From Dastarcus helophoroides (Eukaryota > Arthropoda > Insecta > Coleoptera > Bothrideridae), in assembly GCA_028583605.1 (NCBI GenBank), contig CM053334.1, positions 25,439,226-25,503,225 of the forward strand: a stretch of 64,000 bases of DNA. The letters run 5' to 3'. The notes below the pieces were generated by a model. That model searched no databases and was not told the DNA's origin. It saw only the letters and a program-made list of their open reading frames with translations. Numbering within the stretch: the first letter of the stretch is position 1; each line of letters starts with the position of its first letter. Shown one piece after another: positions 4,044-60,829 of the stretch. The position numbers were made by a program, and so were the translations under genes.

Positions 4044-4057
4044 TATGTGTATATATT

Positions 4058-4215
4058 TTTTTTTTCGTGGAACGGACTGGTCCTTGGTTATTTTCGAAAA
4101 TTGAAATACAAAAACCAAGAAAGACTAAAAAACACAACAAAGGTTGCTCTAATGCGTTTCGATAGCCAAGCTATCATTTTCAGAGAGAGTATCTCTCAAA
4201 ATTTGTATTTCAATT
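4058..4215 (-). mobile_element. Hairpin element copy with 14-bp flanking duplication
   Basis: Minus-strand copy. Its tail lies at the left (+ strand CGTGGAACGGACTGGTCC), followed by one stem arm (CCAAGAAAGACTAAAAAACA) and a central palindrome near GAGAGAGTATCTCTC. Direct repeats TATGTGTATATATT (4044-4057) and TATGTGTCTATATT (4216-4229) flank it, 13 of 14 matching. An A run (T on +) lies between tail and repeat. This is the signature expected of retroposition; the second arm is mostly deleted here. Confidence 0.7.
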
Positions 4216-4299
4216 TATGTGTCTATATTTTTAATAGTGGTCGAAGATTTCAGCCACGTATCCAGTCTACGCGCGATTTTTCTCAAAATTTTGATTTAT

Positions 4300-5270
4300 T
4301 TTAAAAAATTTTTACCTTTTTAAAAATCGCGGCCTCTCAAAATTTTATTTTCTGTTTTGAAAATATCAACACTTTAAAATTTTGACTTTTTCTCGAAGTC
4401 TATTTTCGAAAATTTCAAATTTTTTACCAACTTCTTAACTTTTTCTCAAAATTTTGATCTTTTTGGACTTTTTTGTAACTTATATACATTTTCCACAAAA
4501 TTTGTTATAAAATTTTTGATCTTTTTTCAAAGGTGGACTCTTTAATATTTCGATTTGTCCCTCGAAATGTAAGCTCTTTTTGAAAATTATTTTAACCTTT
4601 ACTGAAGAATTCGCCTTTTTTTAAAAAAAAATTCAACTTTTTTTTGGAACTTTGGACTTTTTAAAATTTTTGAATTTTTAAAACCTACGACCTTACGAAC
4701 ATTTTGTTATTTCAAAATTTCCAATAATTTTAAATTTCGACTTCAAAATTTCGACTCTTTTTTGAAATATTGATTTTTTTACAATCTCGATCTCTAACAA
4801 AATTTGAAAATTGAGAATTTCCACTGTTTGTTAAAATTTAGTTTTGAAAACTTTGAATTTGTCTCGAAATTGAGTTTTTTTTGTTTTAATGTTTTTTAAA
4901 ATAATCGATATTTCAGAACATAAACGTTTTACACATTTCCATTTTCATTAAAATTTTGACAACATTTTGAATTATCGAAACTTTTTTTGAAGATATCGCA
5001 TTTGAAAATTTTTACTTTTTTTTTCGAAATTTGGACTTTTTGTGAATTTGGTCGTGAAAAAATTCTTCTACTTTCTTAAAATTCAAACCTTTTTGGACAT
5101 TACTGACCCTGCTTGAAAATTTCAATTATTTCAAAATTTCCACTTTTTCCATTTTTGACTTTAAATATTGCGACATTTTCTAAAAATTTCGTTTTTACTT
5201 TAAAGCTAAGTGATTTTGAAAATTCAGACTATTGCAAATTGTGTTTTTTTATTTCGACTGAATATTTTAT
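4300..5270. repeat. Skewed low-complexity AT array (pyrimidine-rich on +)
   Basis: Degenerate repeat words such as TTTTTCTCAAAATTTTGA and AAATTTCGACTTTTT recur with an irregular spacing of roughly 20-25 bases. Orientation is opposite to the arrays at 1-1490 and 5640-8720. No coding signal. The 5271-5639 stretch after it is anonymous. Confidence 0.65.
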
Positions 5271-5639
5271 GTTTTTATAAATCGAAAGAATATGCTCTTT
5301 AATGCAGTTGATTTATCCTCAAATGTAAAAACTTATTAGAAAGATCAAATGATTCCTAAAATAGTGATTAATAGATAAGACTGAATAATATAAAATAAGG
5401 TAATGTTTAAAAAAGCTTCCAGGTGAACATGTCTTCGTTCGTTCGTCCTAATTTGGTAAACAAGTAAAAACAATCACAAAACCCTTTTTTAGAATACCTA
5501 CCTTTTTAACATAAATATCTTTTTGATGTACCTATCTTGGAGAAAAAAAAAATCCTTCTCTCAAAATATTCAAAAAGATTTTGAACTTAAGACAATCAAT
5601 GAAACTTGAGACAAAAGAGCAATCTCCATTTTCATGATT

Positions 5640-21511: not shown

Positions 21512-22502
21512 AATGAGATGTTTGTTTCTGAAAGCTATCCTAACACATCAACTTTAATGTTAAATGTTTATGGTAATTACTCTATACTTACAAAAATATT
21601 CACGTGCTTATTTTCCCTAGACCAATTCCGAACTACTTGAGATGAGGTCTATGAAGTAAAATAAGGATCCGTTGGTTGCCATGATTTATAAAATTCTCAT
21701 CGTCCTGGGCCATTTCCTTCATTCATAAAGCTCAAAATGTTTAATGATTCTCGGAAAATATCTCTTCACTCTTAGTTACGTTAGCACACTTGTATCCATT
21801 TTTTTTTAAATATTTTTCACTGTTCGCAATTTCAAATTAACTTGGGTCTACTTTTAAAGCAAATACAAAGATTTCAGGGCCCTCAGAGGCAAAATCGCTT
21901 CTTGATTATCCGCATTTTTCTATATTTTCTGTCTATTGACATTTTATACCTAAACAAGATTTTATTTCTGCATTAGAATTTGTTTATACTTTCTTATTCC
22001 CAATCCAAATCGAACTGTGGCCCATGTTGTATATGAAATTATAGGGTAATACGGTTGAATGGTAAAAAAAAATATATGGTTTGCATTCAAATCCGTTCAC
22101 GTAGTGTACATATCAATGATTTGATTTATTTATTATTAATTCCTTAAATATTATAAATATATTATTAACAAACATCTAAGAATAAACAACTTTAATATAG
22201 TTAGTATCATACGAAGTTTATTTCCAGTACTGAATCATTTCCTTTACACATTTGGATTTATTTTAATTCATTTTTACTCGCTCTTCGGATACCTAACAGA
22301 CATGAATATTAAGCGAAACTATAACTCAAGGTATCTTAATTATTTGAATGAAAAAAAATCCCATTCGAAAATAACGTATTAGATATCATCCAGTCTAAGC
22401 AATTTGATTCGTTTTTATTTTATTTCTTTTTTTCAAAATGAAACTTACAACCATGAGAAAAATTTGATATAGAATAACTAATTTGTTATTAGCAAAACTC
22501 GA
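21512..22502. other. Anonymous intronic stretch
   Basis: AT-rich, no gene, array or transposon recognised. Confidence 0.4.
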
Positions 22503-22652
22503 AATTAAAATACAAATCATGTGCCCTGAAACAAAGAAAGTTTAAAAAACACAACAAACCTTTGTTGTGTTTTTTAATCTTTTTTGGTTTCAGGGGACAA
22601 GATTGATATTTCAATTTTTGAAGATAACTAAGGATCAAGCCATTCCACCAAA
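22503..22652 (+). mobile_element. Hairpin element copy with near-complete stem
   Basis: Left arm CCCTGAAACAAAGAAAG and AAAAAACACAACAAACC is followed immediately by its complement TTTGTTGTGTTTTTTAATC and GGTTTCAGGGGACAAG. The hinge is at 22560/22561 with no loop. The tail GATAACTAAGGATC ... ATTCCACCAAA occurs only on the right. No clear flanking duplication. Confidence 0.75.
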
Positions 22653-27265: not shown

Positions 27266-28916
27266 GGTTTAAAGTGAAAAACTCGAAATACAGTCAAACC
27301 ATCCTAAAGCGAATTACAACAAAATATCGTTATAGAGAGGTTTTCGTTATTGGGAGGTAGCATTAAAAATGCATAGCATAAATCACATGTAAAGTTTCAT
27401 ATTACATATTTTGTTGAGGATTTGGTTGTTTTTATTTTAAAAAAGTTGTGAGGCCGAATTGTTTTATACCGAATATTTCGAATGCTGAGCCAGAAATCTG
27501 GATGTAGACAAATTAAATTTAATTAAAGGAAATCTGTTATTTCTGTTTGAAGAAAGAATTTAGAAAATATTTGCTGCTCAAACATTACTTCGCACTTATT
27601 TAAGGCATTGAAAATAAGTTCAGGTGTGTTCTTAAACTGTAAACCCCCTTTAAATTATTATGTAAACAAAGTCAATGGCGGTTTCTTTAAGATTGCCCCG
27701 AAAACTGATTGCAAAGGAGATACCTACAGGGAATAAAATGGAAACTTTGAAAAAAGATTTAAATTTTCGTATTTTCGTGTAATTTATGAATAAAACAATT
27801 AGGTATAAAACAATCTAAATGTAAAATAAAAATTTCGAAAAAACACTATACATAATTCGAAATTTCGCAAAAATATCAGAATATTAAAAGTGTTAATTAA
27901 AAAAAAGTTGAGATTTCGAAAAAATGTTAATTTGTAAAACTAATAAATTTTTAAAATTCTGAGGCGTTTCTTCAGTAAATTTAAGACGAAATTTAAAAAA
28001 TAATATTGTTTAACAAAAATGAATTTCCGGTAAATATTAATAAGAGAAATAGAACGGTAAACTACATTTTTTTCTATTAAAGCGTGGTGTAATTTAGAAT
28101 TTAATAATTACTAAACCGACAATTCAAAGGTCTTTGATATGCTCCATTACATAAAAGTTCAAGATTTCGTCGTTATCGCTAGCATAATAAAACAATGTAA
28201 AACGTTGCCTGTGTATCTAAAAAACCGCGGTTAAATGTCTATTTATCTATTGTTGATAAACCAAAGTCGTCGTTTCGCTACAATCTGAGCTCTAATGCGT
28301 GAATCTATTGTATTCCTTTTTATTTAGTTTTAAGTAAAGTGGCTTAAATTTCATACTTTATTACGATGTGTTTCCTTTCTTGCAGCAGTATGCAGAATTT
28401 AAATTTAGAATTTATGTATATTTACATGATAACAGCATTTTTATATTCTCGTTTGAATGCTTCTTCGAGGCGAACATTCTGGTCAGTTGTCATAAATTGC
28501 CATTTCTTTAAGTGAATGTCTCTATTAAAACGCCTTCATTACCATTTGCCCCTCTTATTTTTTATCTAAAAAAGGTTACGACCTTGGTAGTTCGGTTATA
28601 ATAGTCGTAGTCACATGGTTAATGGATATGTTTGGAGAAATGCATGTAATTTGCGAGTATAATTGTTCCGATCTCGTTTATATGTTAATAGATAGAATGA
28701 ATTAGATAAACAGGGTGTGTCAAGAAAACAAGTCCTTAACAATCTATAAATAGAGAGAATAACAGAAATAATAAACACCCTCAATTATCCAATAATTCAC
28801 TAGTTTTTGAAATTACTCTAATGCGTATTTCGAGCGTTCTTTAACGATGGAAGCAAAATGAAAAATTGGGAAACTTAAGATGTAATCTATTAAGTAATTC
28901 ATTATAATTGTAACAA
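27266..28916. other. Intronic stretch with a possible pogo-type end
   Basis: At 27291-27365 the sequence ATACAGTCAAACCATCC followed by an inverted TCGTTATAGAGAGGTTT resembles the terminus of a pogo/Tigger element; no second end was found. A short array patch lies at 27760-28000. The rest is anonymous. Confidence 0.35.
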
Positions 28917-29014
28917 TAATTGAAATACAAATCTTGTACCCTGAAACCAAGCAAGATTAAAAAACACAACAAAGGTTGCTCTAACGCGTTTCGGTAGCCA
29001 TCTTCAGAGAGAAA
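28917..29014 (+). mobile_element. Hairpin element, left-arm fragment
   Basis: ATTGAAATACAAATCTTGTA, then CCTGAAACCAAGCAAGATT, AACACAACAAAGGTTGCTC and CGCGTTTCGGTAGCC. It ends after CTTCAGAGAGA with neither second arm nor tail. It stops 41 bp before the hAT-like element at 29056. Confidence 0.65.
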
Positions 29015-29368
29015 CTTACGCATAGTCCTACAATTAACCTTTATATATTAAGAATCAGTGGCGGCTCGTAGCCAAAATGAATGGCCGTTTTATGTTTGAT
29101 CCAAAATGTCGATTTCTTCAAAATTTTAACTTTTTAAAATTTGACTAAAAATTTCGATATTTTCTAAATGTAACTTTTTAAAAATTCTAGATTTCTTAGA
29201 AAGCTTAACAATGAAAATTTTTGAATATTGTCGTGTTTTTTAAAAGACTGGATTTTTTCCAAATTTCGATTGTATTCCAAAATTTAGACTTTTTTCTTGT
29301 AACTTCAACTTTATTTCATTTTTAAGTATGACTTTTTTGAAAATCTATGTATACTCTTTTAAAAATAC

Positions 29369-31565
29369 AGTGGAAACCGGATATAACGACATCGTTTACA
29401 ACGACGGATCGGTTATTACGACGAAATGGCAAGGTCCCGGCTGAATCTCTATATAAACACTTACATAAATATACCGCCTCTAACAACATCGGATAAAACG
29501 TCATATCGCTTAAAACGACGAAATTTATCGAAATTGTCCGATTATAACGACCAACCACCATACATATTATCGCTTAAAGCAATGAAGCATTATTTTAAAC
29601 CTTATTATATTCTATGAACGATTGTTTTGTCTCTCGTTCGCGTCCCTTGACTTTTGAAATTGCCTATTTAGTGCGTCATTTGACCGTTCATACGTATCAT
29701 CGTGTCATTGTTTTTATTAATTTTAGTTTTGATCGTGCATTTTAACGTCACTATGTCGCAAAAAAAGAGGAAGGTGTTTAATATAAAAGAAAAATCACAC
29801 ATTATACGGAGATTAGAAAATGGCGAGTCTAATGGCGAAATTGCAAAAGAATGTGGGGTCTCACACTCCACTATATCAACAATTTGGAAGAATAAGGATA
29901 AAATAAAAGCTCTTTTTAAAAACAATTCTTTGAAAATTAAACTATTGAGGGCATCTGCGCATAAAGTTATAGAAGAAGCTTTATTTAAATGGTTTCAACA
30001 CCAGAGAGCAAACAACGTCCCAATAAGTGGTCCGATCTTGCAACAAAAAGCCAACGATTTCGCTCGGCTTATGGGAAAAGAAAATTTTGATTGCTCATCA
30101 TCTTGGATACCTACAACGTTTCCGTGCTTGTCATAATATTGTGGCAGGAAAAGTTTGTGGTTAAGCTGCTGCTGTTCCTGAAGGTGTGACGGACGAGTGG
30201 CTATCTCATAAGTGGCCTGCACTGTGCGAAGGATACAATCCAGAGGAAATTTTTAATGCGGATGAAACTGCACTGTTTTTTAACTTGACTCCTGATAAGA
30301 CGCTTCAATTCAAAGGGAAACAATGCAAGGGTGGGAAGTTGTCTAAAGCAAGAATTACAGTATTGGTTGCTACGAATATGACTGGATCGCGTAAACAAAA
30401 ACTTTTAGTAATCAGAAAAGCTACAAAACCGCGTTGGTTTAAGAACATTAATTCATTACCTGTAACATACGAAAACAATACTAGGTCTTGGATGACTTAA
30501 CAGATTTTTGAAAAATGGCTTCGATACTGGGATGCACAATTGAAATCAAAAGGTAACAAAATTTTTCTCTTAGTAGACAACTGTCCTGCTCACCCTGTCG
30601 TTCCCAATCTAAAATGCATAAAACTTGTCTTTTTGCCACCCAATGTCACCTCTGTATTAGAACCCATGGACTTAGGAGCGATAAAAGCTCTAAAAACACA
30701 GTATAGAAAACTTTAAGTGCTGCAAATGCTTCAGAAGGTTGAAAACGGCGAGAATACAAAAAGTATTAGCATTCTGGATGCAATTTTAATGATATCAGAA
30801 CCTTGGGAAAAGATAACACAGACCACTATAGTCAACTGCTTTCGCCATGCAGTTTCAAAGATCTTTCTGCATCAGCAGAAGAGGACGATGATGATATTCC
30901 GCTTGCAAGACGACTCCAGTCTCCAACAGATAAAGAGGACAACATACCTCTAGTTCAATTGGCTGCTTAGTTAGCCACAGAAACAGAAATTGAAATAGAG
31001 GAGCTCATAGGAAGAGATAATAATGTTGCCGTGTGTGCCTCAGTTACTGATAAAGAGATTTTAGCAAAAATCGAAAGTAATCACAACACTGACGAAGGGA
31101 ACGAAGACCAACTCGAGCAGTTTCAACCAACAACACTATGCGAGGCTATTAACGCTATCACAACTCTACAAAAATTTATCGCTTTTAACGAAGAGTTTAA
31201 TTCTGATGTTAACCAAGAAATTTTAATGAAAATGAAACGAAAAATGCAAAATACATTTAAAATTCAAATTTAGAAAAAACAGACCAAAATGACCGATTAC
31301 TTTAAAAACTAATTGTACGGAAGTAACGTATTTTTAAAATAAATTTCTTGTTCATTTTTTTTTTAAATTTTATTCGCATACCAGTTCTTACAGCGAATAC
31401 CTATTTATTACGTTTATTTAAATTAAATACATACCTAATATGCACATTCATATTGCATATTCAAATTTGTACATATATACTTATGTATATTGCTTATAAC
31501 AACTACCGCTTATAGCGTCCGTAATTTATGGTCCCTTCAGTGTCAGTTATATCCGGTTTCGACTG
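29369..31565 (+). mobile_element. Tigger/pogo DNA transposon
   Basis: 2197 bp between TA dinucleotides (29367-29368 and 31566-31567). Terminal inverted repeats: CAGTGGAAACCGGATATAAC at the left and CAGTCGAAACCGGATATAAC read inward at the right, one mismatch in 20. Subterminal copies of TATAACGAC-like words follow the left end. It carries a broken transposase gene and lies inside a large hAT-like element. Confidence 0.92.
29753..31273 (+). pseudogene. Tigger/pogo transposase, broken
   Basis: Order: N-terminal CENP-B-type helix-turn-helix (MSQKKRKVFNIKEKSHIIRR, then GEIAKECGVSHSTISTIWK), second CENP-B DNA-binding block (KWFQHQRANNVPISGPILQQ), then the DDE domain: NADETALFF (first D at 30261), FLLVDNCPAHP (second D at 30576), VLEPMDLGAIK (third D at 30669). 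About 30 residues separate the last two acidic residues, as in pogo/Tigger transposases. The C-terminal part ends at TAG 31273. Breaks: a frameshift near 30110, and in-frame stops near 30162, 30498, 30715 and 30970. In the intact state it would bind the transposon ends in the nucleus and cut and paste at TA. ATG 29753 begins the recognised domain; several of the stops fit C-to-T change, for example CAA to TAA at 30498. Confidence 0.9.
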
Positions 31566-31569
31566 TATT

Positions 31570-34100
31570 TCCATTTTGGAAAATATTTCAACTTTTCGGT
31601 GTTTGGTGTTTTTTGTATTTTTTTTGAAAACTAAGTACATTTTTTCAAAATTTTCACCCTCTGAAATTCTTACTTTTTTCGAAAATGTAAAATTTTTTAA
31701 TACTAGACTTTTGACTTTTTAAATTGTCGATCTTTTTCACAATTTCATTATTTAATTTTTGAAAAATTATAATATTTTTATTGAAAATTTCGATTCTTAA
31801 TAATTTCGACTGCTTTTGGTTTTTATTGATAATTTGGGTGAAAATTTTCCAATTATTTAAAATTTAAACTTTTTTAAAATTTTGAACTTATTCTAAAAAC
31901 CTTATAATAATTCTCAGATCTTTTGAATGTGTCTACTTTTTCGAAGTTTTGTTATTTTTTTTAATTTGGACTATAATATTTCAACCTATTTGTTTGAAAA
32001 CTTCTCCATTTTCAAAATTTTGACTTCTTTTGGAAATTTTAAAGTTTCTGGAAATGTTTGCCTTATCCTTAAATTTTTTATATATTTTGTATATTTCTCA
32101 AAATTTGAAAGAAAGTGTCAAAAAATTTCGACTATTTTTTGAAAATCTTAACCCTTTTTGAAATCTGAACTTTTCCAAAATTTTCGACCTTTTTTTAATT
32201 CCCACTTTGTTGAAAATTTCGGTTTTTCAAATGTTCAAATTTTTCAAAATTAAAAATTTTTGTAACACTTAAAAATTTCGACTATAGTTTTAATTTCAAC
32301 TATTTTCAAAATTTCGACATTCTTTGCAAACTGTCGATCCTTTATTTAAAAATTTTGATTGAGACATTTCTTAAAAAGCCATTTTGAAATTTTGGACCAA
32401 TTCGTAATATTTCGAATTTTTCTAAAAATTTAGACTCTATTTCAAAATGTCGAGTTTTTTTTTAAATTTCGACTCTATGAAAACTTGATTTTTCTTTAAA
32501 GGTTCTAACTTTTTGCCAAAATATTATTTATAATTTTTTTTGATCATTTCCAATTAAATCTTCAACTTAAAAAAAATGAGTTTTGTCTTAAATTTGAACT
32601 ACTCAAAATTTCGACATTTTCCAAAAATTTATCTTTTCTCAAAATTTCAACTTTTTTGATAATTACGAATTTTTTGATTATTTTGAGTTTTTTCCAATAT
32701 TCAAAAATTCAGCTTCTTTTAAAAATTTAATTAATAATTCTGCAATTTATTTTAAATGTCGATATTTTTCCAAACTTTTGCCTTTTTTCCGCTCGCAAAA
32801 TTATTAAAAATGTAGACTATTTTAAAAATTCAATTTTTTTTAAAATATTAACTTTTTTCACAATTCTTATTTTCTTTTGGAAATTTGACTCTTTATGAAA
32901 ATTTCGAAATTTTTAAAAATTCCACTTTTCTCCAAATTTTGGCTTTTCTGATAACTTTGGCTTTATTTTTTATAACTGGTAATTTTTTCTTTTTCAATTT
33001 AATTTTTTTGGTATTATTATTATGTTTATTATTTACTTATTAGTATTTTAAAATAAATATTACTCCTAGTAACAAAAATTTCGATTTATAAAACTATGCA
33101 ATGCTTTAAAACAAATTTCGAAAAATAAAACTTGCAGTTTATGTAGAAATAAATTGTCAAAATTTAAAATTTAATCTCAAAATATTGATTTCAAGCATTA
33201 AATTGTTGAATATTTTTTTTGCAACGTTTTGATTGTTTTTATTTTCCAAATTTTGAGACTTTTTCTCGAAAATTTCAATAATTCCCACTTTAAAAAGTCG
33301 AAATTTTAGGAATATTTTTGACAATTAATTTATTTTTAAAAATCTTTTTTTTCTTTGATTCCCAAATTGTTCTTTATTTCAAAAATTTTGTATACAAATA
33401 AGAAACTTAAATTTTTCCTAGAAATATTGTCTGGTTTTTCTTTAAAATTTGCTCTTATTCTTTAAATTCGAACTTGAGAATCTTAAGAATAAATTTTAGG
33501 GTGTTTTGCTAAACATTTTTATCAAAATTAGAAAATAAAATAAACTATGAAATGTCAAAGTGTAGTGAAAAAACTTGACATTTTTAAAGTAAATTAGAGG
33601 AACATAAAAAATCTGGAGAGGTTGAAATTTCAGAAGAAATTTTAAGAACAAATTTTTTAGAAAAAATAGGAATTTATAAAAAAAAATTGTTTTTATAAAA
33701 TATTTAGAGAAAATGGAAACTTCGCAGGAAAAATTAAAATTTTCCTAAATAAATCGAAATATCTAGAAGAAACTCAAATTTTTTATACAAAAAAGTTAAA
33801 ATTGAGATTTCAGGTAAAGACTGGAATATTCGCTATTAATTTTTTTTAGAGAAATATTAAAATGCAAAAAGAGTTGAATATAGATGTTATTTTGAAACTT
33901 TAATTATCTTTTCAAAATTTTTACAAAAATTAGAAAAAAAAAATTAAAATAGGTTTTAAAATCCCTTAACTTCGTAAAAGAAACTTGACATTTTTATAAA
34001 AAGTAATCAGAGAAAAATTAAAATCTCTACAAAAAATTGTTTAAGGAAAAGTCTTCGGAAAATTTTTAGAACAAACTCATTAGCGAAATTGGGGATGCTG
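31570..34100. repeat. Skewed low-complexity AT array inside hAT-like element
   Basis: Pyrimidine-rich words (TTTCGACTTTTT, CAAAATTTTGAC) from 31570 to about 33400, switching to purine-rich words from about 33500 to 34080. The switch point suggests two array halves in opposite orientation. No coding signal. Confidence 0.65.
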
Positions 34101-34345
34101 CAGTTCCACAGTGCCTATACGCGAACCGCCACTGCTAAGAATATTCACTTCGTTCATGATCGACCGCATTCGAACGCGCATGCACATTTAATAATACACG
34201 TCGTAGTGTCACAATTCCTTATTTATCAACCTTAACTATTTTTAACAGACATGACAGACCCAATGGCCCAGCGCAACCATTCATAAGGCTGTCCTCCAGC
34301 CTTATGGTTGACTAAGCTTTCACATGCATTTAATATAGAATTCTT

Positions 34346-34465
34346 TTTTGGTGAAATGGACTGGTCCTTGGTTATCTTCAAAAATTGAAATACAGAAATT
34401 GTCCAGAGCAACGTTGTGTGTTTTTTTAATCTTTCTTGGTTTCAGGGCACAAGTTCTGTATTTCA
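34346..34465 (-). mobile_element. Hairpin element copy with perfect 11-bp flanking duplication
   Basis: Direct repeats ATAGAATTCTT at 34335-34345 and 34466-34476 are identical. On the minus strand the copy runs TGAAATACAGAACTTG, CTGAAACCAAGAAAGATT, a largely deleted second arm, then the tail GATAACCAAGGACC and an A run before the duplication. This is the clearest evidence that the element ends at the stem base on one side and after the A-rich tail on the other. Confidence 0.85.
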
Positions 34466-34494
34466 ATAGAATTCTTATTTACTAATTCTTAACA

Positions 34495-35527: not shown

Positions 35528-35690
35528 TTTTTTTACTGGAACGGACTTGTCCTCGGTTATCTTTAAAAATTGATATACAAATCTTGTTCCCTGAAACCAA
35601 GAATGATTAAAAAATAATTAAAAAATACATTGTATTTTTAAATCTTTCTTGGTTTCAGATTTTCAGTTTTTAGATTTGCATATCAAATTT
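35528..35690 (-). mobile_element. Hairpin element, diverged copy
   Basis: Tail at the left (+ strand CTGGAACGGACTTGTCC), left arm CCTGAAACCAAGAATGATT, then a short AT spacer and the complementary arm AATCTTTCTTGGTTTCAG. Ends near GATTTGCATATCAA. Flanking duplication unclear. Confidence 0.65.
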
Positions 35691-35846
35691 TAAAACAGTT
35701 TTACAAAATTTCTAGAACATACTATTCTCCACACAGAAATTATCTATATTTTGTAATATTTGTGAAATATTAAAATATCAATGATTAAATCATGGTACAA
35801 TCTCAATAAGTGTGATTTTCTGGGAACGACCAGAAGATGAGAGCAT

Positions 35847-42229: not shown

Positions 42230-43032
42230 AGATTGCATTCTCAAATTAAAGTCGAAATTTCGGAAAAAAATCCAATCTTCAGAAAATAGCTTTCGGAGAA
42301 CTTTAAGAAATGTCGAAATATCAAAAAAGTTTAAATATAAAAAAAACAAACTTTCCAAAGGTCGATTCTTGTGAAAAAAGTGGTAATTTCCAGAACAAGT
42401 CGAATTCAGTTAAAGAAAATTGCAACTTATAAAAATCATTTTTTCAAAATTTTTATTTTATTTCAATTTTGTTATATTCTTGAAATTTTTTAAGAAATCT
42501 TTTTGGTAAAATTTTAAGAAAGTATTGTTCACAGATTTTTAGGTTTCTATTAAAATTTCGATCCAATTTAAAAAAATAAACGCATTTTGTGAAAAAGTCT
42601 CAATCTTTAGCAAAAATTGAATTTTAAATGGAAATGTCCAGAAACAGATAATATCGAGTTTCGAGATTAAAGTCAAAATTTGGAGAATTAGATGAATTTT
42701 AGATAAGTTGAAATTACCGGAAATCAAATTTAAAAAATCAGAAGAAACAGGGACTTCGAAAAAAATTTACGATTTTTGAAAATTACGTTGGAATTTCCAG
42801 AAAAATATTGAACTTTCTAGAAAATATTCCAAATTTCCAAAAGAAAGTCCAATTTTAGAGGGAAAATTAAAAAAGTTGGAATTTTTAATAAGTCAATTTG
42901 AAAATAAAGACCCAGCTTTTTGTAAAAATTCGAGAAATGTCCAAATTCGAAAAATTTTCAAAGGTCTTATTTTGTAAAAAAAGCTATTTTCAGAAAAAGT
43001 TGAATTTAAAAAAAATCACAATTTTCAAAAAC
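42230..43032. repeat. Skewed low-complexity AT array (purine-rich on +)
   Basis: Words such as GTCGAAATTTCGGAAAAAA and TTCCAGAAAAA recur. No coding signal. It ends at the start of a hairpin element. Confidence 0.55.
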
Positions 43033-43303
43033 ATTATTGAAATACAAATCTTTTCCCCTGAAACCATGAAAGATTAAAAAACAGAACAAAGGTTGCTCTA
43101 ACGCGTTTCGATAGCCAAGATATGAGATACAGCATCTCTCTGAAGATGTAACTCGAGGAGCTTTGAATGGATCTCTCTGAAGATGATAGCTTGGTTATCC
43201 AGACGCGTTAGAGCAACCTATGCTGTGTTTTTTTATCCTTCTTGGTTTCAGGGGATAAGATTTGTATTTTAATTTTTGAAGATAACCAAGGACCACAAAA
43301 AAA
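43033..43303 (+). mobile_element. Hairpin element, longest copy
   Basis: About 270 bp. Left arm: GAAATACAAATCTTTTCCCC, GAAACCATGAAAGATT, CAAAGGTTGCTCTAACGCG, TTTCGATAGCC. Right arm: GATAGCTTGGTTATCC, ACGCGTTAGAGCAACC, CCTTCTTGGTTTCAGGGG, AAGATTTGTATTTTAA. Centre: two CTCTCTGAAGATG repeats. The tail TTTTTGAAGATAACCAAGG is right-sided and runs into an A run. This copy shows most of the inferred full hairpin. Confidence 0.8.
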
Positions 43304-44739: not shown

Positions 44740-46199
44740 CAATTTAAATTATTTTCAAAAGTTCGAATTTTTTAAAAACTTTGATTTTGAAAATTTTAAC
44801 TTTTTCACAATTTTGACTTTTTTTAGACTTATTTTGTAAATTTCGACCTTTTCGAAAAATTCGTATTTTTTTGAAGAATTCTACTTGCTTTAAAAAATTT
44901 GAGTTTTTTAAAAAAAAATTCAAATTTCAACATTTTTGGGAAATGTTTACCTTTCAAAGATTCGACGTTTTCTGAAAATTTCGACTTCTGGTAAATTGTG
45001 GCTGGCTTAAATTGGACCTTGTAAAATTTAAACTTTCTAAAATTTAGGCTTGAAAGGTTGAAGATTTTCAGAAAATTTGGTACGTTTTTGGAAAAGTTCC
45101 ATTTTTTAAGTCTCGACCCTTTTTACAAATTTCGCCTTTTTTTGTATCATTCGATCTTTTTTTTTTTGAAAATTTTTACATTTCGGAGTTTTTGCTTTTT
45201 TCAGAACCTTGAATTTTTAATTTATTTTAAGGAAAAAAATGGGAACAAAAATCACTTCAAAATAAATGGAATAACATTTCAAAAGTATATTTTTGTTCTG
45301 CAATATTCGATTTCTTTTAAATGTTAGACTCCTATGAATATCTCAATTTATTTTTAAATGTCAAGCTTTAAACAGTTTCAGTTTTGAAATTATTTAATTT
45401 TTTTAAATTTCGAATTTTTTAAAATTTTGACTCTTTTCTTGAAATGTCTATTTGATTTGATTTATTTGAAAAACTTGGACACTTTTTGATAATTTCAACA
45501 AAAATTTTAAATAATTTTAAGATTTTGAATTTTTAAAAAGCTTTATATACATTTTTTAATAATTTGGTTTTTGAAAATTGCGATAATTTCGAATATCATT
45601 TTAAAAATTTCGAATAATATTTAAAAATTTAGACTTTACTTTAAAAAGTTTCAATGTTAGAATGTCCAAACATGTACACATTCAGTTTAAATGAAATTTT
45701 AGGCCGAAAAAAATTGTAGTTAAAATGAAAATTTGAATTACGAAATTAGACGTTGTTATATCGAATAACATAACTTAAATAAAATTATGAAAAACTATAA
45801 GACAAAGTAGAGAATAAGCGAAAATTTATGACCATTTTTTACTTGGCACATGTTTTCTTGTAAAAATAAAGTTGTCTGTCTTGCTCTTTTTTTCAAAAAA
45901 AATACTGTCATATCTGATTTGAAGTGGAAATATTTTGAAATCGAAACTAAGTTTTAACTTGGGAGGTCTATAGTCTCTAGAAAAGCTTTAAATTTTAGGA
46001 TTAGAGTTCATAATTTAATGTTTTTTCTATAAGAAAAATAAGAAATTTGAAAAAACTAAAAATAAAATTGGTACAACCAATTTCGAGATTTCGAGATTTT
46101 CGCCATCAAAATTGCCACTTCAATCATAAGCTTAATACCTGTGACTCGAATGTTCTACTTTTAAAATCGAAATTACATAAAAACAGAATTTTAAAAAAT
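44740..46199. repeat. Skewed low-complexity AT array
   Basis: Pyrimidine-rich from 44740 to about 45660, then mixed AT-rich sequence. Opposite skew to the segment left of the LINE fragment. No gene. Confidence 0.55.
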
Positions 46200-46380
46200 T
46201 AAAATACAAATCTTGTCTCCTGAAACCAAGAAAGATTAAAAGAGAGATACATATCTCTCTGAAGATAATAGCTTGGCTATCGAAACACGTTAGAGCAACC
46301 TTTGTTGTGTTTTTTAGTCCTTCTTGGTTTCGGTTGACAAGATTTGTGTTTCGATTTTTGAAGATAACCAACAAAAAAAA
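46200..46380 (+). mobile_element. Hairpin element with shortened left arm
   Basis: AAAATACAAATCTTGTCTCC, GAAACCAAGAAAGATT, then directly the central GAGAGATACATATCTCTC and the right arm GATAATAGCTTGGCTATCG, CGTTAGAGCAACCTTTG, CTTCTTGGTTTCGG. The tail AAGATAACCAAC is truncated and runs into an A run. Confidence 0.75.
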
Positions 46381-50109: not shown

Positions 50110-52020
50110 CATTCTTCTTCTTGTTTAGCCCGTTTTCATCTACTCTTGAACATAGGCCTCCTCCACCACTCTCTATCTTGAGCATTCAAGATCCATTTTT
50201 GCCAACTCGCCTCTGAATATCGTTTCTCCATCTTGTTTGAGGGCGTTCGACACTTCGTTTAGTTTCTGTCGGTCTCCATTGTATTATCATCTTCGTCCAT
50301 TTAATATCATCTCTGGCGACGAGTCCTATTCAGCGCCATTTATTAGTAATTACACGTTCTATGTCATAGATGACTCTCGTTCTCTCTCTCATGGCTCGCT
50401 TGTGACTCGGTCTCTCAAAGTGATCCCCAACATTGCGTGCTCTATCATTCGTTGGCATCCCCTTAAAAAGATGCGCCCTGCTTTGTGTTATGGTTAATGT
50501 TTCGAGGCCGTATGTCATGACAGGCAATGTGCAAGACTCGAAGACTTTCCGTTTCAGGTTGATGGGAACGTTCGGTTTCCTGAGGATGTAGGCAAGTTTT
50601 CCAAATTCCGCCCATGTCTCGCCTGGTGATTTTTGCGGCCCGATTTTATTTGCCGAGCCTGATGTTGTGGCCAAGGTACACATATTCTTCAACCACTTCA
50701 AGTGTGTGATTGTCGAGCGTAACCTGAACGTTGTTTGGACCCATGACCTTGATTTTTTGAAGGTTCATCCTCAGTCCCACGGTCTCCGAAACTTTTTTCA
50801 GCTCTCTTAAGGTATCTTTAAGTTCATTCGCGTGGGTGCTCATTAGGACGATGTCATCAACGAAGCGTAGGTGACTTGAAAACTTTCCACCGATATTGAC
50901 TCTTTTCTGTTGCCATGTCAGATTTTTGAAGACATCTAGTAGTGCGAGCATAAGCAGCTTTGTCGCCTTTTCTGACTCCTCTTTTGATGGGTATCCTTTC
51001 GGTGACTAACTAAGTCTTCTTCAACTTTGATTTGGAGAGTGGCGTGTTCATAGATGTTTCTGATGAGGTTTGAGTATCTTGAGTCAATCTTTGCAGCGTT
51101 CATCGCATGCAAGATTGCCCAGATTTCTATCGAGTCGAAGGCTTTTTGGTAATCGATCAATGCCAATTGGAGTGGGACATTGCATTCAGTGCATTTCTCG
51201 ATCAGTGTGCGCGATCAGTGGATACGATCGATCGTGCTGTAACCCTTTCTGAATCCAGCTTGTCGCACAGGTTGGTAAAAATCGAGCTTTTTGTTGAGAC
51301 GGTTGGTGATTATTCTGGTTAAGAGCTTATATAGTACCGAGAGAGGACTGATAGGCTGGTAGTTTTCAATGTTCGTTGTATCGCCTTTTTTTGAAGAGGA
51401 TGGTGACCTCAGAATTTCTCCATGCATTGGAAATTCTTCCTTCTTCCAGGCATTTTTCGAGGAGAATAAGAAGCGCCTTTTCTAAAGCTTTTCTTTTAAT
51501 CTTGAGCATCTTATTTGTCACTTGGACTTCTCCGGGAGCCTTTCGGTTTCTCATCTTTTCAGTGCTAACCTCAGTTCTTGTTGGTTAATTTCGGGGATTT
51601 TCTCGGAGCCGACGTTTTGGATTACTCGGCCTTTATCCTCATGGAGACAGCATGGCTCTGATGTTGACTGGCTGTACAATCTCAAATAGAAGTTTTCGAT
51701 AATAGCAACCATTTCACCTTTCTCTGATACTACTATCAGTTCATTTTTCATCTTGAGCGCTTTCCCTTTAGCCATTTTGGATCGAAGGACTGTCGTGTTC
51801 ATATCATCTTCATTGGCTTCTTGGATTTTTCACGCGTTGTACCCCCTAAAATCTCTACAAATCGTCCTCTTTACTATTTTATTAAACTGGCGGCATTGAG
51901 GTGCGTCATGATCCTTAACTCTGCGCTCTTCTAATAGTCTTAATGTGTCAGGAGTAAGCTTCGTGTTTCTGTGTTCACCCGGATAATTTTGACTAATTTT
52001 TCTGTCAGCTTATTTAAGTC
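50110..52020 (-). pseudogene. RTE-like LINE reverse transcriptase relic (second RTE type)
   Basis: Minus-strand order: LEERRVKDHDAPQC (about 51900), MAKGKALKMKNELIVVSEKG, IPEINQQELRLALKRM then RNRKAPGEVQVTNKMLKIK, NIENYQPISPLSVLYKLLTR and QAGFRKGYSTIDRIH, ALIDYQKAFDSIE, LRFVDDIVLMSTHANEL (the usual FADD is FVDD here), VEEYVYLGHNI, and the C-terminal RKVFESCTLPVMTYGLETLT. Known: this series is the reverse transcriptase of RTE-clade LINEs. The N-terminal endonuclease is absent. Frameshifts occur near 50940, 51160, 51220, 51370 and 51560. It differs in sequence from the RTE-like relic at 35967-38765, so it is a separate lineage. Confidence 0.85.
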
Positions 52021-52192: not shown

Positions 52193-53330
52193 CTTTTTTT
52201 TTAAGTTTAATCCACTTGCAAAGGGTAAACCCATTATGCTTCCAAAGAACTGTGAGTAGTATGCGGAAACAAGGATAGATGGCGATGAACCGCCTTCTTA
52301 AACAAGGATAAGTTGTAATTTTTGGGGACAATTCCTCTCGGTAACAAGTTCCATAACTTAGAAGTTCTATAGAAAAAAGAGTCTCCATAGACAGAAGTCC
52401 TCACTGTTTCAAGCTAGACCGCACAGTAATTTGCTGCCTCTCACTCTCTAGTATGCCTCAAGAACCTTGCCCTTGGGGGAATCAATCCTATTAGTTCCAG
52501 CGAGCATCTTCCGTGATAGTACTTGTAGAAAAGTGACAAGTCACCAACAATACGCCTGTGCTCTAGTGTTTCAAGGGAATCAGTTAGCCTTTCGTGATCA
52601 ATTAGGCGAATCGCTCTTCTTTGAATTGAATCCAAAAGAGCTAAAGTGTGTTTTGGGGCTGAACTCCAAACATGAGAACAGTATTCTAGTGTTGGCCTAA
52701 TTTGAGCTTTGTACAGTGTTAATAGCTGATGAGATGTGAAGTACCTTTTAGCTCTAAAAAGAAAGCCTAGCTTCTGAGAGGCAGATTTGGCAATGGCGCG
52801 CACATGATCGTCCCAAGAGAAGTTAGTGCTTGCATTCACTCCTAGGATAGATTAGATCCCATCGGAAGGATTTTACCGTCCATTAGTATGTTTGTTGCAT
52901 TATACTTTGATGTTTTCTTAGAGAAAACCGCGGCCTGAGTTTTTGAAGCGTTGAAGTCGACCAAATTGTTTTTACATCATTTCAGAATAATCTCTAGATC
53001 CCGATTAATTGTCGGTATCTGCTGTTCCCTTAGGCAATCTGAAGCAGCGATAGATAATGGTTTGTCCGAGAAAAAAGATGACACAAGGTTACTATCATCT
53101 GCGTAGCTGTATATAGGATTGGAAGTTGAAGCTAAGAGATCGTTTATGTGTAGCAAAAATAGAATAGGTGACAGAAGAGACCCCTGAGGCACCCTTGCGT
53201 TAATCATAAAGGTCTCGGATGAGATGCCATCGTCGTGAAGAGATCTGTCAGCGAGAAAATTTGATATCAAATGACAGAGTCCAGGAGGAAGACCATAAGA
53301 TGTTAACTGCTGCTTACCAACATGTATGTA
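52193..53330 (-). pseudogene. Jockey/CR1-like LINE reverse transcriptase, C-terminal part
   Basis: Minus strand: YGLPPGLCHLISNFLADRSL, INARVPQGSLLSPILFLLHI, SYADDSNLVSSFFSDK (catalytic YADD at 53091-53105), then after a frame change FSWDDHVRAIAKSASQKLGF, KAQIRPTLEYCSHVWSSAPK, LDSIQRRAIRLIDHERLTDS, and finally FYRTSKLWNLLPRG-like sequence. Known: this is the usual end of jockey/CR1-type reverse transcriptases (annotated in insects as transposon BS-like). It is 5' truncated at about 53330 and has frameshifts near 52900 and 52400. The 3' end is GGATTAAAC followed by an A-rich tail (minus strand) at about 52193-52215. Confidence 0.85.
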
Positions 53331-54644
53331 CGCCTAGATCAAAAACAGATTTATTCGCGGTCGGATTTTGTGAATATTATTGCTATCGTAACTTTACTAT
53401 GATTTATGTCAGGTAATTGAGGTAAAATATTTTCTGAAACAGTTAAGGTACTAAATATAATTTTAACAACACCAATTACAACTACAGAATCAGAGTACTG
53501 CTTTTCGCCGTTAAAAAGATTAAAGGTCTCTTGAATAATACCATGAATATAGCCGTTTAAATACTTTAGAGATAATATTCATCAACAAAAATAAGGTGCA
53601 GAGTATCAATTTTGATGACAAAGTAATAGAATCCTTTATTTCTTTGAAATAATATAGAGCGGATTTCATTTATAAAAAATAAAGTTTGTGTGCTTTTGTG
53701 TACTTTAGATAAAAGATCGTAAACTTTCATCACCACAGATAATTTTCATGACAAAGTGACAGTTTATATCCCTGAGCATAGAAACAATTTTAATTTAAGA
53801 AACACATTTTGCGTGCATTTGTATAGCTCTACTATAATAATGTACTGAACTAGGGTAATATTCTATCTTTTGGAACTGACTCCCCCCTCCCCACTAGTCG
53901 TTGCTGGTCATAGATGACAAATTTATTTACTTTTGACCTTTTTCTATGTATCTGTCTAAGAAAAAACTGCGCTATTACTCGAAGATGTTCAAGGAACCTT
54001 TGGACATAATGCGCCTATATTGATTTTGTCACACTAACGTAATTAGGTTAATTATTTTAGAGTTTGAGTAAAATGCCATTTCTCGTACTCCAGTCAAATG
54101 TTAACTAGGTGCATAAAAGAAGATAATTATAGCATGAAAACTCACGACAACCAGACATAATTATTTCAAATTATATAATATGAAATTTCTTTTTAATAAC
54201 ACGAAGCGTGACTCAGTTGTAATTTTATTTGACTGAATTCCCCAAAAAAACTGTAGATAATGTCTAGATAGTGAGTAAGTTTTAAGGTCTGTCGAAATAT
54301 CCTCCGAACGTATCCATTAGTTGCAATATTTGAAAGTAGGAAGGTGATATTTAATGAATTTCCTAATAGATGCAATTGTCTTACTGCTCTCTTTGTAAAT
54401 CTTTGTTTTTTTTTATATCTCCAGCCTTTTGATTTCTACCAATATTTTGACTTTTCAATTTATTTAAGCTTCATCTATTCATTCGGATAAAGAAATAATT
54501 TATATGTTACGTCTTACATCCTATCTACAGTAATATTATAAAGACGACTGAAAAACCTAATCATCATTAAATAAATTAGAAACACGAAATGTGGAAAGTA
54601 GGTTCGTTTCACAGTAAAGATGAGCAGTAGAAGGGATTTTTGAA
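53331..54644. other. Anonymous intronic stretch
   Basis: AT-rich, no gene or repeat recognised. Confidence 0.4.
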
Positions 54645-57240: not shown

Positions 57241-60200
57241 ATTTAAAGTAGATCCGATATTTTAAACGGAAAATTAATATTTTTAAAGCATTCACAATAT
57301 TCACAAAAAAATTCGAGAACAAGACGAAGTTCTGAAAAAAATCTAAATTTTCCAAGTCGAAATTTTGAAAAATAATTGTATTGAAATGTTCAAAAAATTT
57401 AAAATCTTCAAATGAAAGTATACATGAAAATCTTTAATGACGTCAAAATTTAAAAAAAAATTTCAAAAACCAAACTTACAAGGAATAAGAGAAAAAAATG
57501 AAAATTTCCAAAGGACTTAAAATTTAAAAGATAACATTTTGAGTAAAACCCAAAAATAAAAAATTTTGACATGTGCCATTTTCAAAATGAATAAAACATC
57601 TCTAAAAATACAAAATTTTCAAAAAGGATCAAATTAAAAAAAATAATATTTTGAGAAGAAAATTGAAATCTTAAAAAGTCCAAACTTCAAATAGGTAGAG
57701 ATTTCCAAAAAAGGTGCAAGTTTTCAAAAAACTGGCAATTATGAACAAAAGATAACATTTTTAAAAGAAGTAAACACGTGAAAGTTAAGCAAGGTTGATT
57801 TTTTTTTAAAATAAAACTTTTTAAAACTTGCAATTTTCAAAAAGTCAAATTTTCAAAAAAAAAAATTAAAACGGTCAAAAGGTCCAAAAAAAGGTTATAT
57901 TTTTCAGAAAAGTCAAAACTTTTAAAAGAACAAATGTTCAAAAGGGTCAGCGAAGTCGAAATTTTTAAAAAATCCACGTTTTCAGAAGTCGAGAGTTAAA
58001 AAAAATGTTAAAATTCTGAAAAGATTTTGAAAGAGTTAAAATAATCAGATAATTAAAATTTTTAGAAAAAAATCAGTATTTTGAAACAGTCAAAATTTTG
58101 AGAAAAAGACAAAACTAAAAAAATGAAATGTGATTTTCAAAATGAAGTCAAAATTTTCTAAAAAATTGGAAAATTTCAAACAAAATTGAAATCCTAAAAA
58201 GTCCATACTAAAAAACTAGCAATTTTGAACAAAAGATAAAATGTTTAAAAGAAATAAAATTTTCAAACACGTGACAGTTAAGCAAGGTCAATTTTTTAAA
58301 AAATAAGAATTTTGAAAGGCAATTTTCAAAAGGTCAAATTATTGAAAAAAATTAAAACTGTCGAAAGGCAGAAAAAAGGGTTCTATTTTTTAGAAAAGTC
58401 GAAATTTTTAAAAGAACGAATGTTTGAAAGGGGCAACAGGTTGAAATTGTCAAAAATTTAGAAGTCGAAATTTAAAACAATTTTAAAATTCTGAAAAGAT
58501 TTTCAAAGAGTAAAAAAAATCAGTATTTTGAAACAATTAAAATCTTAAAAGTCAAAATTTTGAGGAAAAGACAAAACTAAAAAAATGAAATGAGATTTTC
58601 AAAACGAAGTCGACATTTTCTAAAGAGTCGAAATTTTCACAAAAGGTCCAATTAAAAAAATCAAAATGAAAATTAAAATCTTGAAAAAGTCGAATATTTA
58701 AAAAAAATCAAAATCTTCAAATATGTAGAGATTTTTAAAAAAGGTTGAAATTTTCAAAAAACTGATAAAAAAGTTTAAACTTTTAAAAGAAGTTAAATTT
58801 TTAAAATGTTTAAAACACGCAGAAGCTTTAAAAAGTTCGATTTGAAAAAAGAAAATTTTGACATTCACAATATTCAAAACAGTCAAATTTCCAAAAATAG
58901 TTAAAACCGTCAAAAGGTCGAAATTTTAAAACAAAAAGGTTTATCAAAATTTTCAAACGGCGGATTGCTGAAAGGGGCCAAAATTTTTAAAAAAGTTGAA
59001 ATTTTCAATAATTATAATTGTCCAAAGCCGAGAGTTAAAATAAATTGAAAATAATAAATATTTTAAAAGCTTTAAAATATTAACGTAGTCAAAATTTTGA
59101 GAAAAAAATGAAAGTTTTGAAAGAATTAGAAGTTATCAGAATTTTCAAAATAAATTGAGATTTTTAAAAACGGTGGACATAAAAAATTTTAAAATTCTGA
59201 AATTTTTATATGAAAGTCGAAAATTGGGAGTGTAGTTAAAACTTGAATACAAAGTTAAAAAGTCCAAATTACAAAATCGGAGGTGAGTTTGTAAATAATA
59301 TGTCAAGGTAAAAGTGGAATTTTGAGAAAAAATCGTTGTAACTTCGAAAAAAACAATCAGAATTTCGTAAACCTGCAACCTTCAGAGAAAAAAGTGAAAG
59401 TTGGGAAAATAAAAAATATTTTTGACAGACAAGAAATTTTTCAATGGTGAGACATTTTCATACAGGCATATCTCTCTTTAAAAATTTTGAAGAAATGGGG
59501 GGTTTGAAAAAAGTGGGAATTTTAAAATGTCAACATTTTTAAAATAAGTCACATAGTCAAAATACTGAGGAAAAATTAAAATGTTGAAAAAATGAAGTTT
59601 TGAAAGAGTGGGAATTTTAAACTGTCAAAATGTTCAAAATATATCAAAATTTTTAAAAACGGTAGCCATAAAAAAATGAAAATTCTGAAATTTTAATATG
59701 AAAGTCGAAATTTGGAAATGTAGTTAAAACTTCCAGAAAAAATTTGAAGAATCCAAATTAAGCGAGAATTTTAAGAAATTAAAATTTTGAACAATTGCAA
59801 TATTTAAAACAATCAAATGTTTGAAAAAAGTTAAAACTGTCAAAAGGTCAAAATTAAGAAAAGGTTGTATTTTTCAAAAAAGTAGAAACTTTTAAAAGGA
59901 CGAATTTTCGGAAGGGTCGACATTTTCAAAAAGGTCGAAGTTTAAAAAAAATAACGCTCTCAGAAGTCGAGAGTTAAAAAAAATGTTAAAATTCTGAAAA
60001 GATTTTGAAAGAGTTAAAATATTCAGATAGCCAAAAAATTAGTATTTTGAAACGATTAAAATCTTAAAAGTCAAAATTTTGAGTAAAAGACGAAATTAAA
60101 AGAAACCACATGGTCAAAATTTCGAGAAAAGATCAAAATTTTAAAAAAATAAGAAGTTCTGAACAAGTGAGGATTTTAATTGTCCAAATTTTTAAAATAG

Positions 60201-60400
60201 GTCGAAATCTTCAAAAGCAGCAAATTAAAAAAAAATCGAAATTTTCAAATGCATTCGAAAGCTTCAAAAAGTCGAAATATTCAGGTGGTCGAAATTTAAA
60301 AAAAGTCGACAATTTGAAAAATGAAAAAATAAAGAAGTCAATTTTGTTTGATAAAAGTTCAAATTCAATATGTTAAAATTAATCAAAATTTATAAAATAT
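57241..60400. repeat. Skewed AT array with higher-order repeats
   Basis: Purine-rich words throughout. Longer shared blocks reveal duplications: CACGTGAAAGTTAAGCAAGG at 57774 versus CACGTGACAGTTAAGCAAGG at 58268 (about 490 bp apart), and CAGAAGTCGAGAGTTAAAAA at 57980 versus 59960 (about 1.98 kb, near four times 490). At least four diverged units are implied. Confidence 0.6.
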
Positions 60401-60406
60401 CTATGT

Positions 60407-60568
60407 TAAAATACAGAACTTGTCCCCTGAAACCAAGAAAGATTATAACACACAACAAAGGTTGCAAAGAGAGCAATTTTTGTTGTGTTTTTTAATCTTT
60501 CTTGGTTTCAGGGGACAAGTTCTGTATTTCAATTTTTGAAGATAACCAAGGACCTGTCCGTTCCACCA
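60407..60568 (+). mobile_element. Hairpin element copy with 13-bp flanking duplication
   Basis: Direct repeats AAAATATCTATGT (60394-60406) and AAAATATCCATGT (60569-60581), 12 of 13 matching. Arms: ATACAGAACTTGTCCCCTGA, AACCAAGAAAGATT and AATCTTTCTTGGTT, TCAGGGGACAAGTTCTGTAT pair almost perfectly. The tail GAAGATAACCAAGGACCTG, TCCGTTCCACC, A run is right-sided. One of the youngest-looking copies. Confidence 0.88.
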
Positions 60569-60829
60569 AAAATATCCATGTCTTTAAGAAAGTTGAAATT
60601 GTCAAAAAAATCTGTTTTTCTTTAAGTTGAAGGTAAAAAAAGAGAGATTGGCAACAAAAATTCACAATGTTCGAAAAAGAGTTGGAAGAAATATCAATAT
60701 TCTGAACAAAACAAATGAGATCTCCAAAAAATCGAGAACTTTGGAAAAATATGAAATTATCAATAAAGGTCGTAATTTTTAAACTCCTATCCCTTTCATT
60801 TTATCGTCGAAGTGAGAATAAGGGATTTG

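What the first reader, a model, noticed from the sequence alone, without database searches (positions are those of the whole stretch)
4044..60581. A hairpin-forming interspersed element that looks retroposed
At least ten copies (827, 4058, 22503, 28917, 34346, 35528, 43033, 43726, 46200, 60407) share one design: a long inverted repeat (arms with CCTGAAACCAAGAAAG and its complement, AACACAACAAAGGTTGC and its complement) and a single tail of about 45 nt (GAAGATAACCAAGGACC, GTCCGTTCCACC) ending in A residues. All nine tail-bearing copies have the tail on one side only. Four copies have flanking direct repeats of 11-14 bp (34335/34466 perfect; 4044/4216 13 of 14; 43715/43887 10 of 11; 60394/60569 12 of 13), lying right after the A-rich end. 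Variable 11-14 bp duplications plus an A tail fit target-primed reverse transcription, not a cut-and-paste foldback transposon. A SINE-like element whose RNA would be almost entirely double-stranded would be unusual and could be a Dicer substrate.
Basis: partly seen in the sequence, partly recalled or inferred. Interest (0 to 1): 0.88.

Follow-up and report, generated by a model that had tools for sequence, protein, structure and literature searches.

The report
Penelope retrotransposon leaders inserted as hairpins
These scattered hairpins match the start of a Penelope-type jumping gene's predicted RNA, their end tag occurs at about 19,000 places in this likely insect genome, and each was likely made when the element's enzyme copied RNA onto both cut DNA strands, so together they would record how a poorly understood class of jumping genes inserts.

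Summary
The ten loci are real and nine carry a one-sided tail, with variable target duplications, but only seven of the nine are true inverted repeats. Reverse transcription is supported; a SINE-like hairpin that spreads as a unit is not. Arms and tail match the pseudo-LTR (pLTR) that follows a Penelope-type RT plus GIY-YIG frame in the same genome. The window holds one such element (34725-34135 and 29055-28914, minus strand, split by a DNA transposon): the tailless "copy" at 28917 is its 3' end, and hairpin 34346 sits inside its endonuclease.

The 30-nt tail (up to 2 mismatches) occurs at 19,244 places, reversed control 0. In a sample from one chromosome, arms run from two start points, about +106 and +140, back towards +1, a start predicted from a TATA box and initiator: 31 of 84 right and 27 of 56 left arms end at -3 to +6, none ten or more upstream. 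Duplications are enriched, junctions recur only where flanks are shared too, and the two arms share variants.

Best explanation: internal, target-primed reverse transcription of a Penelope mRNA leader on both strands. Inverted pLTRs, tail and duplications are known for Penelope; leader-only hairpins in bulk look like a new variant. A hammerhead-cut end peak is only suggestive.

The parts
825..896 (-). copy 827: left arm (RNA +110 to +48) joined straight to a tail stub (+133 to +144), no inverted repeat; candidate duplication beside it
4062..4219 (-). hairpin copy 4058: left arm +111 to +89, right arm +5 to +144 with a 13-nt gap; duplication TATGTGTMTATATTTTT at 4044-4060 and 4216-4232 (16 of 17)
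22502..22652 (+). hairpin copy 22503: left arm +108 to +52, right arm +48 to +143
28914..29055 (-).
29056..34134 (.). insertion that splits the Penelope-like element: CAGTGGCGG at both ends (inverted), 8-bp duplication TTAAGAAT/CTAAGAAT (7 of 8)
   Evidence: read
34135..34218 (-). pLTR stretch upstream of the predicted start, just after the endonuclease stop codon
34225..34725 (-). GIY-YIG endonuclease end of the Penelope-like ORF (decayed), interrupted by hairpin copy 34346
   Evidence: tblastn with the L112 frame; alignment
34346..34465 (-). hairpin copy 34346: left arm +106 to +43 (ends at the predicted hammerhead cut), right arm +86 to +144, inserted inside the endonuclease
34335..34345 (.). 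target duplication of hairpin 34346, first copy
34466..34476 (.). target duplication of hairpin 34346, second copy
35531..35694 (-). hairpin copy 35528: left arm +113 to +56, right arm +61 to +144
43021..43302 (+). hairpin copy 43033: left arm +116 to +19, right arm +4 to +128 (tail cut short); extra repeated stretch in the loop
43727..43881 (+). copy 43726: left arm +104 to +4, right arm +102 to +144, arms overlap by 3 nt; candidate duplication AGACAAACACA/AGACTAACACA
46188..46380 (+). hairpin copy 46200: left arm +116 to +63, right arm +3 to +122 (tail cut short)
60406..60571 (+). hairpin copy 60407: left arm +105 to +46, right arm +43 to +144 (starts at the predicted hammerhead cut); duplication AAAATATCTATGT/AAAATATCCATGT

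Best explanation
Each hairpin consists of pieces from the first ~140 nucleotides of a Penelope-like element's predicted mRNA and was likely laid down when the element's RT used both cut strands of the target as primers on its RNA. Shown: arms and tail equal the pLTR that follows a Penelope-type RT plus GIY-YIG frame; arm ends lie at preferred outer points (about +106 without tail, about +140 with tail) and pile up at the predicted transcription start; insertions carry variable target duplications; junctions recur only between copies that share flanks; both arms of one insertion share variants. Inferred: the endonuclease makes a staggered break; the 3' end of one strand primes RNA copying at the inner start, the other at the outer start; both cDNAs run back towards the RNA 5' end or stop early; the two cDNA ends are joined, giving an inverted repeat with one tail. 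Because copying starts so near the mRNA's own 5' end, most products would be short, dead hairpins; longer copies (L112-L115) would come from downstream pLTRs of read-through RNA.
For: Penelope link: the L112 frame has RVT_1 and GIY-YIG above Pfam cut-offs; in L112, L113 and L115 the pLTR begins a few bases after the stop codon (to the tail in L112 and L115); L102, L108, L109 and L111 show EN then pLTR. Tail count 19,244, reversed control 0. Outer ends of left arms: 38 of 56 at +101 to +113, 6 at +144, 7 between, 5 shorter. Inner ends against a probe with 115 nt upstream of +1, duplicates removed: right arms 31 of 84 at -3 to +6, left arms 27 of 56, none ten or more upstream; TATA 31 nt before +1. 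Duplications: score 9 or more in 15 of 50 (16 of 51 before duplicates were removed) vs 2 of 302 shuffled pairs; empty site. Junctions. Arms share variants: 51 pairs, within 0.099 vs re-paired 0.119, 0 of 5000 shuffles as low. Published parallel: a purified Anolis Penelope enzyme cuts and extends both strands and starts RT at two adjacent internal sites that bound the tail (PMC11167929).
Against: The one-tail rule is not absolute: 6 of 51 left arms also carry a full tail, and of 17 pairs outside the sampled tails 13 have one, 3 two, 1 none. 24 of 90 sampled tails have no antisense match upstream and 32 have none adjacent, so single-strand priming or later loss also occurs. 35 of 50 insertions show no duplication at score 9 or more. 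In the window alone the arm-pairing test was not significant (p 0.10). No 5'-complete Penelope copy was found, so the frame was not shown to run on past the tail; its openness up to there is weak evidence (12% of shuffles). The sample is 90 exact-tail copies from the first 20 Mb of one contig. The transcription start is predicted, not measured.
Confidence: 0.8

Rival explanations
1. A non-autonomous hairpin element (SINE-like or MITE-like) that is transcribed and copied as a finished unit by the Penelope machinery.
For: Many copies share the overall design, and shared variants between arms would be expected here too.
Against: Among 58 junctions the recurring ones (L072/L076, L026/L039) belong to copies that share flanks; 24 of 90 tails have no antisense arm, several of them starting near +1; inner ends pile up at the predicted start of the Penelope mRNA; left, right and mixed arm distances are about equal in the window (0.149, 0.138, 0.146).
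Confidence: 0.08
2. One cDNA is made from the tail end and folds back on itself (self-priming at the palindrome), and later deletions trim the arms; the 2013 rotifer paper proposed self-priming on an antisense template for head-to-head pLTRs.
For: Some copies have a palindromic centre (GATACTGATCAGTATC in L028 and L080); perfect palindromes are known to be unstable (recalled), so later deletion is plausible.
Against: A fold-back copy of the tail-bearing strand should carry the tail on both sides; 45 of 51 left arms lack the full tail and 38 of 56 stop at +101 to +113. Of 56 pairs only 12 have both arms near full length, 29 have one, 15 neither, which fits two separately stopped cDNAs.
Confidence: 0.1
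3. A foldback DNA transposon moved by cut-and-paste.
For: Inverted repeat in most copies.
Against: Variable duplication length, one-sided tail, arms identical to a retrotransposon's pLTR.
Confidence: 0.02

Closest known systems
Penelope elements with inverted pLTRs and a tail (Adineta vaga Pen families, PMC3846280; passages seen)
   Same: Inverted pLTR beside a direct one, optional 31-bp tail on one pLTR, short target duplications, palindromes at the pLTR 5' end in some families, pLTR holding the first codons of the ORF, solo pLTRs noted
   Different: There the inverted pLTRs flank a body and copy numbers are low; here sampled copies are only the RNA leader, in the thousands, and many arms end at the predicted transcription start
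Anolis carolinensis Poseidon (PAc), in vitro (PMC11167929; parts 1-3 of 4 read)
   Same: Two adjacent internal RT start sites that bound a 30-40 bp tail, both target strands cut and extended, hammerhead at the start codon with the cut 26 bp past it (24 nt here); by eye the printed PAc template has the same order CUGA-N-G-AUG ... GAAAC ... GUC
   Different: In vitro no difference in start site between the strands was seen; here one end of an insertion usually uses the inner and the other the outer site. My search pattern, which asks for a spacer after GAAAC, matched ours and not PAc
Metazoan retrozymes (PMC7229834; passages seen)
   Same: Small non-coding units with hammerhead motifs, suggested to depend on Penelope-like elements
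   Different: Retrozymes are tandem repeats (circular RNAs of about 170-400 nt); these are inverted repeats with a tail

Membership tests
Penelope-like elements (PLE) | single ORF with RT and GIY-YIG endonuclease | tested here: met
   L112 frame: RVT_1 30.3 bits (cut-off 29.6), GIY-YIG 26.5 bits (22.6); homologues, many insect, with PF00078, PF26215 and in part PF01541; frame sits beside the same pLTR
Penelope-like elements (PLE) | pLTR, optionally inverted | tested here: met
   pLTR after EN in L112, L113, L115; in L114 an inverted pLTR reaching the tail end lies upstream of the frame and the pLTR pieces after it stop at about +112
Penelope-like elements (PLE) | 30-40 nt tail on one end | tested here: met
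   34 nt between +106 and +140; one-sided in most insertions
Penelope-like elements (PLE) | short target duplication | tested here: met
Penelope-like elements (PLE) | minimal hammerhead ribozyme in the pLTR | tested here: inconclusive
   The typed leader consensus fits the motif (1 of 20000 shuffles does), but no window copy does and 2 of 120 shuffled window strands do by chance; no Rfam match; cleavage not testable here
Penelope-like elements (PLE) | tandem or partial-tandem copies | not tested
   copies examined looked 5'-truncated
SINE | tRNA- or 5S-derived head | tested here: not met
   ARAGORN 0 tRNAs in the window; no Rfam match at gathering score
SINE | copied as a unit, 3' end shared with a LINE | tested here: not met
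   Junctions recur only with shared flanks in the sample; 3' end belongs to a PLE
Foldback transposon or MITE | constant-length duplication and symmetrical ends | tested here: not met
Retrozyme | tandem repeats with hammerhead, circular RNA | tested here: not met
   copies are head-to-head inverted, not tandem; circular RNA not testable

The most novel reading that the evidence does not exclude
One Penelope mRNA serves as template for both cut strands at once: the first RT starts at the inner site and leaves the outer site free for the second, which is why most insertions carry one tail and matching variants in both arms; the element floods its host with leader-only hairpins, and its hammerhead sometimes supplies a self-cut template (arm ends at +42 to +44 in 8 of 140 arms against 2.3 expected). 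Thousands of such insertions would be a natural readout of Penelope integration.
Probability: 0.35. Interest if true: 0.78.

Novelty: new variant of a known kind. Interest (0 to 1): 0.62.

Why it matters
How Penelope-like elements integrate is largely open: the in vitro study that I read calls its enzyme the first active one, and the rotifer paper explains inverted pLTRs by self-priming. If this reading holds, one genome offers thousands of short insertions whose ends record both RT start sites, the RNA 5' end, the target break and the joining step, so that two-strand priming and the role of the hammerhead become testable by counting. It also shows that a retroelement that starts copying near its own 5' end can fill a genome with hairpins that are easily taken for SINEs or MITEs.

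Tried and rejected
Rejected: SINE unit, foldback transposon, fold-back of one cDNA (see rivals). Hairpin as an Rfam RNA: no match at gathering score; looser searches of three stretches gave only matches below gathering scores. Open frame through the tail as proof of coding: 2422 of 20000 shuffles are also open, so not used. A 42-residue peptide of that frame found no protein. Exact patterns in viral contigs (none; 58: one hit, L001, not followed) and genome contigs (none). The hammerhead-cut peak is kept as suggestive only: another 3-nt window reaches 7 ends. Not measured: the ratio of long to short Penelope copies; the pattern search for it did not complete. Shared downstream sequence in L026/L039/L046/L061 and L014/L016 showed no conserved reading frame by eye and looks like shared flanking repeats. 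Papers not held.

Rows dropped: L034; L034 and L076; L034, L076, L039, L046, L061 and L016 (copies that share a flank with L033, L072, L026, L026, L026 and L014). One search used 51 of 90 (left arm within 60 nt, outer end at 105 or more in the old numbering), one search used 58 of 90. One search counts the pair of L033/L034 twice, once. L003-L009 were not used in the end counts. The 90 are the first 90 of 100 places listed.
Full report
What was claimed and what is there. All ten are found again. Read with the tail at the 3' end, a full copy is a left arm (antisense), a right arm (sense) and, after the right arm, a 34-nt tail ending in CCACC and a few A. Nine loci have the tail; at 827 only a stub (825-836) is left. 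In 827 there is no right arm beyond the stub and in 43726 the arms overlap by 3 nt, so seven of the nine are inverted repeats. The inner ends of the arms differ from copy to copy. Flanking repeats were scored with fixed rules: 5 of 9 copies reach 9 or more, against 0 of 72 mismatched flank pairs.

Genome-wide. The window lies in a 538.9-Mb genome whose species is not given; relatives of the element's protein include beetle, mosquito and other insect proteins, so an insect is likely. The 30-nt tail with up to 2 mismatches occurs 9,630 + 9,614 times; the reversed control pattern 0 times. I examined the first 90 of the 100 exact-tail places listed, all on contig C1 (loci L010-L099). 66 of 90 have an antisense match in the upstream stretch, 58 of them within 60 nt of the right arm.

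Which element it is. GIY-YIG endonuclease matches are numerous in this genome (91 reported; 150 of 1070 candidates scored). In one family the endonuclease frame is followed by the hairpin's arm and tail sequence: L102, L108, L109 and L111. Six further loci with long frames were taken: five are of this family (L112-L116), L117 is of another. L112 (392 residues, RVT_1 and GIY-YIG above Pfam cut-offs), L113 and L115 have the stop codon a few bases before the pLTR; L112 and L115 run to the tail, L113 stops earlier. In L114 an inverted pLTR that reaches the tail end lies upstream of the truncated frame, and the pLTR pieces after the frame stop at about +112; inverted pLTRs with one tail are described for Penelope elements in rotifers (PMC3846280, passages). 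In these copies the pLTR has about 115 nt that hairpins lack, with TATATAAG beginning 31 nt before the A of TTAGT in the probe. I call that A +1; it is a prediction.

The window's own Penelope element. A search with the L112 frame finds its endonuclease end at 34725-34225 on the minus strand, then the pLTR stretch to about 34135. Hairpin 34346 interrupts this endonuclease; seven relatives (L108-L113, L115) have the uninterrupted site with one copy of AAGAATTCTAT or a near match, so the 11-bp duplication and the limits of the insertion are shown directly. The element goes on at 29055-28914, from about -38 to +111: between the two parts lies a 5.1-kb insertion with CAGTGGCGG ends and an 8-bp duplication matching at 7 of 8. 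So the tailless 'copy' at 28917 is this element's 3' end. No frame of this Penelope family was found in the 90 sampled tail loci (tblastn).

Where the arms end. With the pLTR as probe, including the 115 nt before +1, right arms (n = 88) start at -3 to +6 in 35 and 10 or more upstream in none; left arms (n = 57) end at -3 to +6 in 27 and 10 or more upstream in 1. After removing six loci that share a flank with another, the counts are 31 of 84 and 27 of 56, none upstream; 18 and 13 lie exactly at +1. Part of the exactness at +1 comes from a C/T difference at -1 between hairpins and the probe; the wider count does not depend on it. Left outer ends: 38 of 56 at +101 to +113, 7 between +114 and +128, 6 at +144, 5 shorter. 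So many templates begin at the predicted mRNA start, and copying starts mostly at one of two points. The published Anolis enzyme has such a pair of start sites bounding the tail and extends both target strands (PMC11167929).

One tail, two cDNAs, one source. Of 17 head-to-head pairs that were not selected by their tail, 13 have one tail, 3 two and 1 none (one pair counted twice in 81). A full tail on the left arm, given one on the right, is seen in 6 of 51, against 19 of 34 free ends in those pairs (Fisher p 2e-5; selection differs between the two sets). Among 58 junctions two recur in the listing of the most similar pairs: L072/L076, which share left flanks, and L026/L039, which share right flanks. 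Without duplicates both arms are near full length in 12 of 56, one in 29 (left 20, right 9), neither in 15. In 51 pairs the two arms of one insertion are closer to each other than re-paired arms (0.099 vs 0.119; 0 of 5000 shuffles as low); at +30 they agree in 20 of 21 (expected 11.3) and at +93 in 37 of 44 (expected 22) (L076 and L034 dropped). In the window alone this test was not significant (p 0.10). This fits one RNA, or two RNAs of one source, for both arms; later conversion between arms would look alike. Target duplications score 9 or more in 15 of 50 insertions against 2 of 302 shuffled pairs.

Hammerhead. [quoted passage not shown] 1 of 20000 shuffles of the leader fits. No window copy fits, 2 of 120 shuffled window strands do, and Rfam shows none. 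The cut was predicted before the sample was drawn; ends at +42 to +44 number 8 of 140 arms against 2.27 expected (p 0.0024), and window copies 34346 (left) and 60407 (right) end at +43. The width of three bases was chosen afterwards and another 3-nt window reaches 7, so this is a lead.

Mechanism. Shown: identity with the Penelope pLTR, outer and inner ends, duplications, junctions, shared variants. Inferred: two-strand priming, inner site on one strand and outer site on the other, joining of the two cDNA ends. Known from papers: inverted pLTRs, tail, duplications, internal start, both strands extended. In the held library, searches listed no paper that by its title or listed abstract describes leader-only Penelope hairpins in bulk; several key Penelope papers are not held, so this is no proof that none is in print.

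Noticed in passing
29056-34134: 5.1-kb insertion with CAGTGGCGG ends and an 8-bp duplication, hAT-like by ends (recalled), inside the Penelope element; it holds a CENP-B/Tc5-type transposase frame at 29684-30136, a type that as recalled does not go with an 8-bp duplication, so it may itself be composite.
   Followed up: partly
L110, about 1950-2150 in the orientation: A Penelope pLTR breaks off near its start and runs into a TTAGG-type array, as if inserted in or repaired by telomere-like repeats.
   Followed up: no
L101, L103-L107, L117: A second Penelope-like family with its own GIY-YIG frame; its pLTR was not studied.
   Followed up: no
L014 and L016, downstream of 1531: A tandem array of about 151-bp units that contain pieces resembling the hairpin centre (CATCTTCAGAGAGCTACTGAAGATG).
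   Followed up: no
36708-37103, 50330-51005, 52441-53333 (minus strand): Frames that look like reverse transcriptases of other retrotransposons; 36708-37103 hits RVT_1, two of the others had no Pfam match.
   Followed up: partly
RNA +40 to +84 of the leader: A 45-nt stretch begins with GT and ends in TTTCTTGGTTTCAG, like a short intron that would keep the frame.
   Followed up: no
L071, left of the right arm: AGAGCAAC, the first bases after the predicted hammerhead cut, occurs twice at the 5' junction of one insertion.
   Followed up: no
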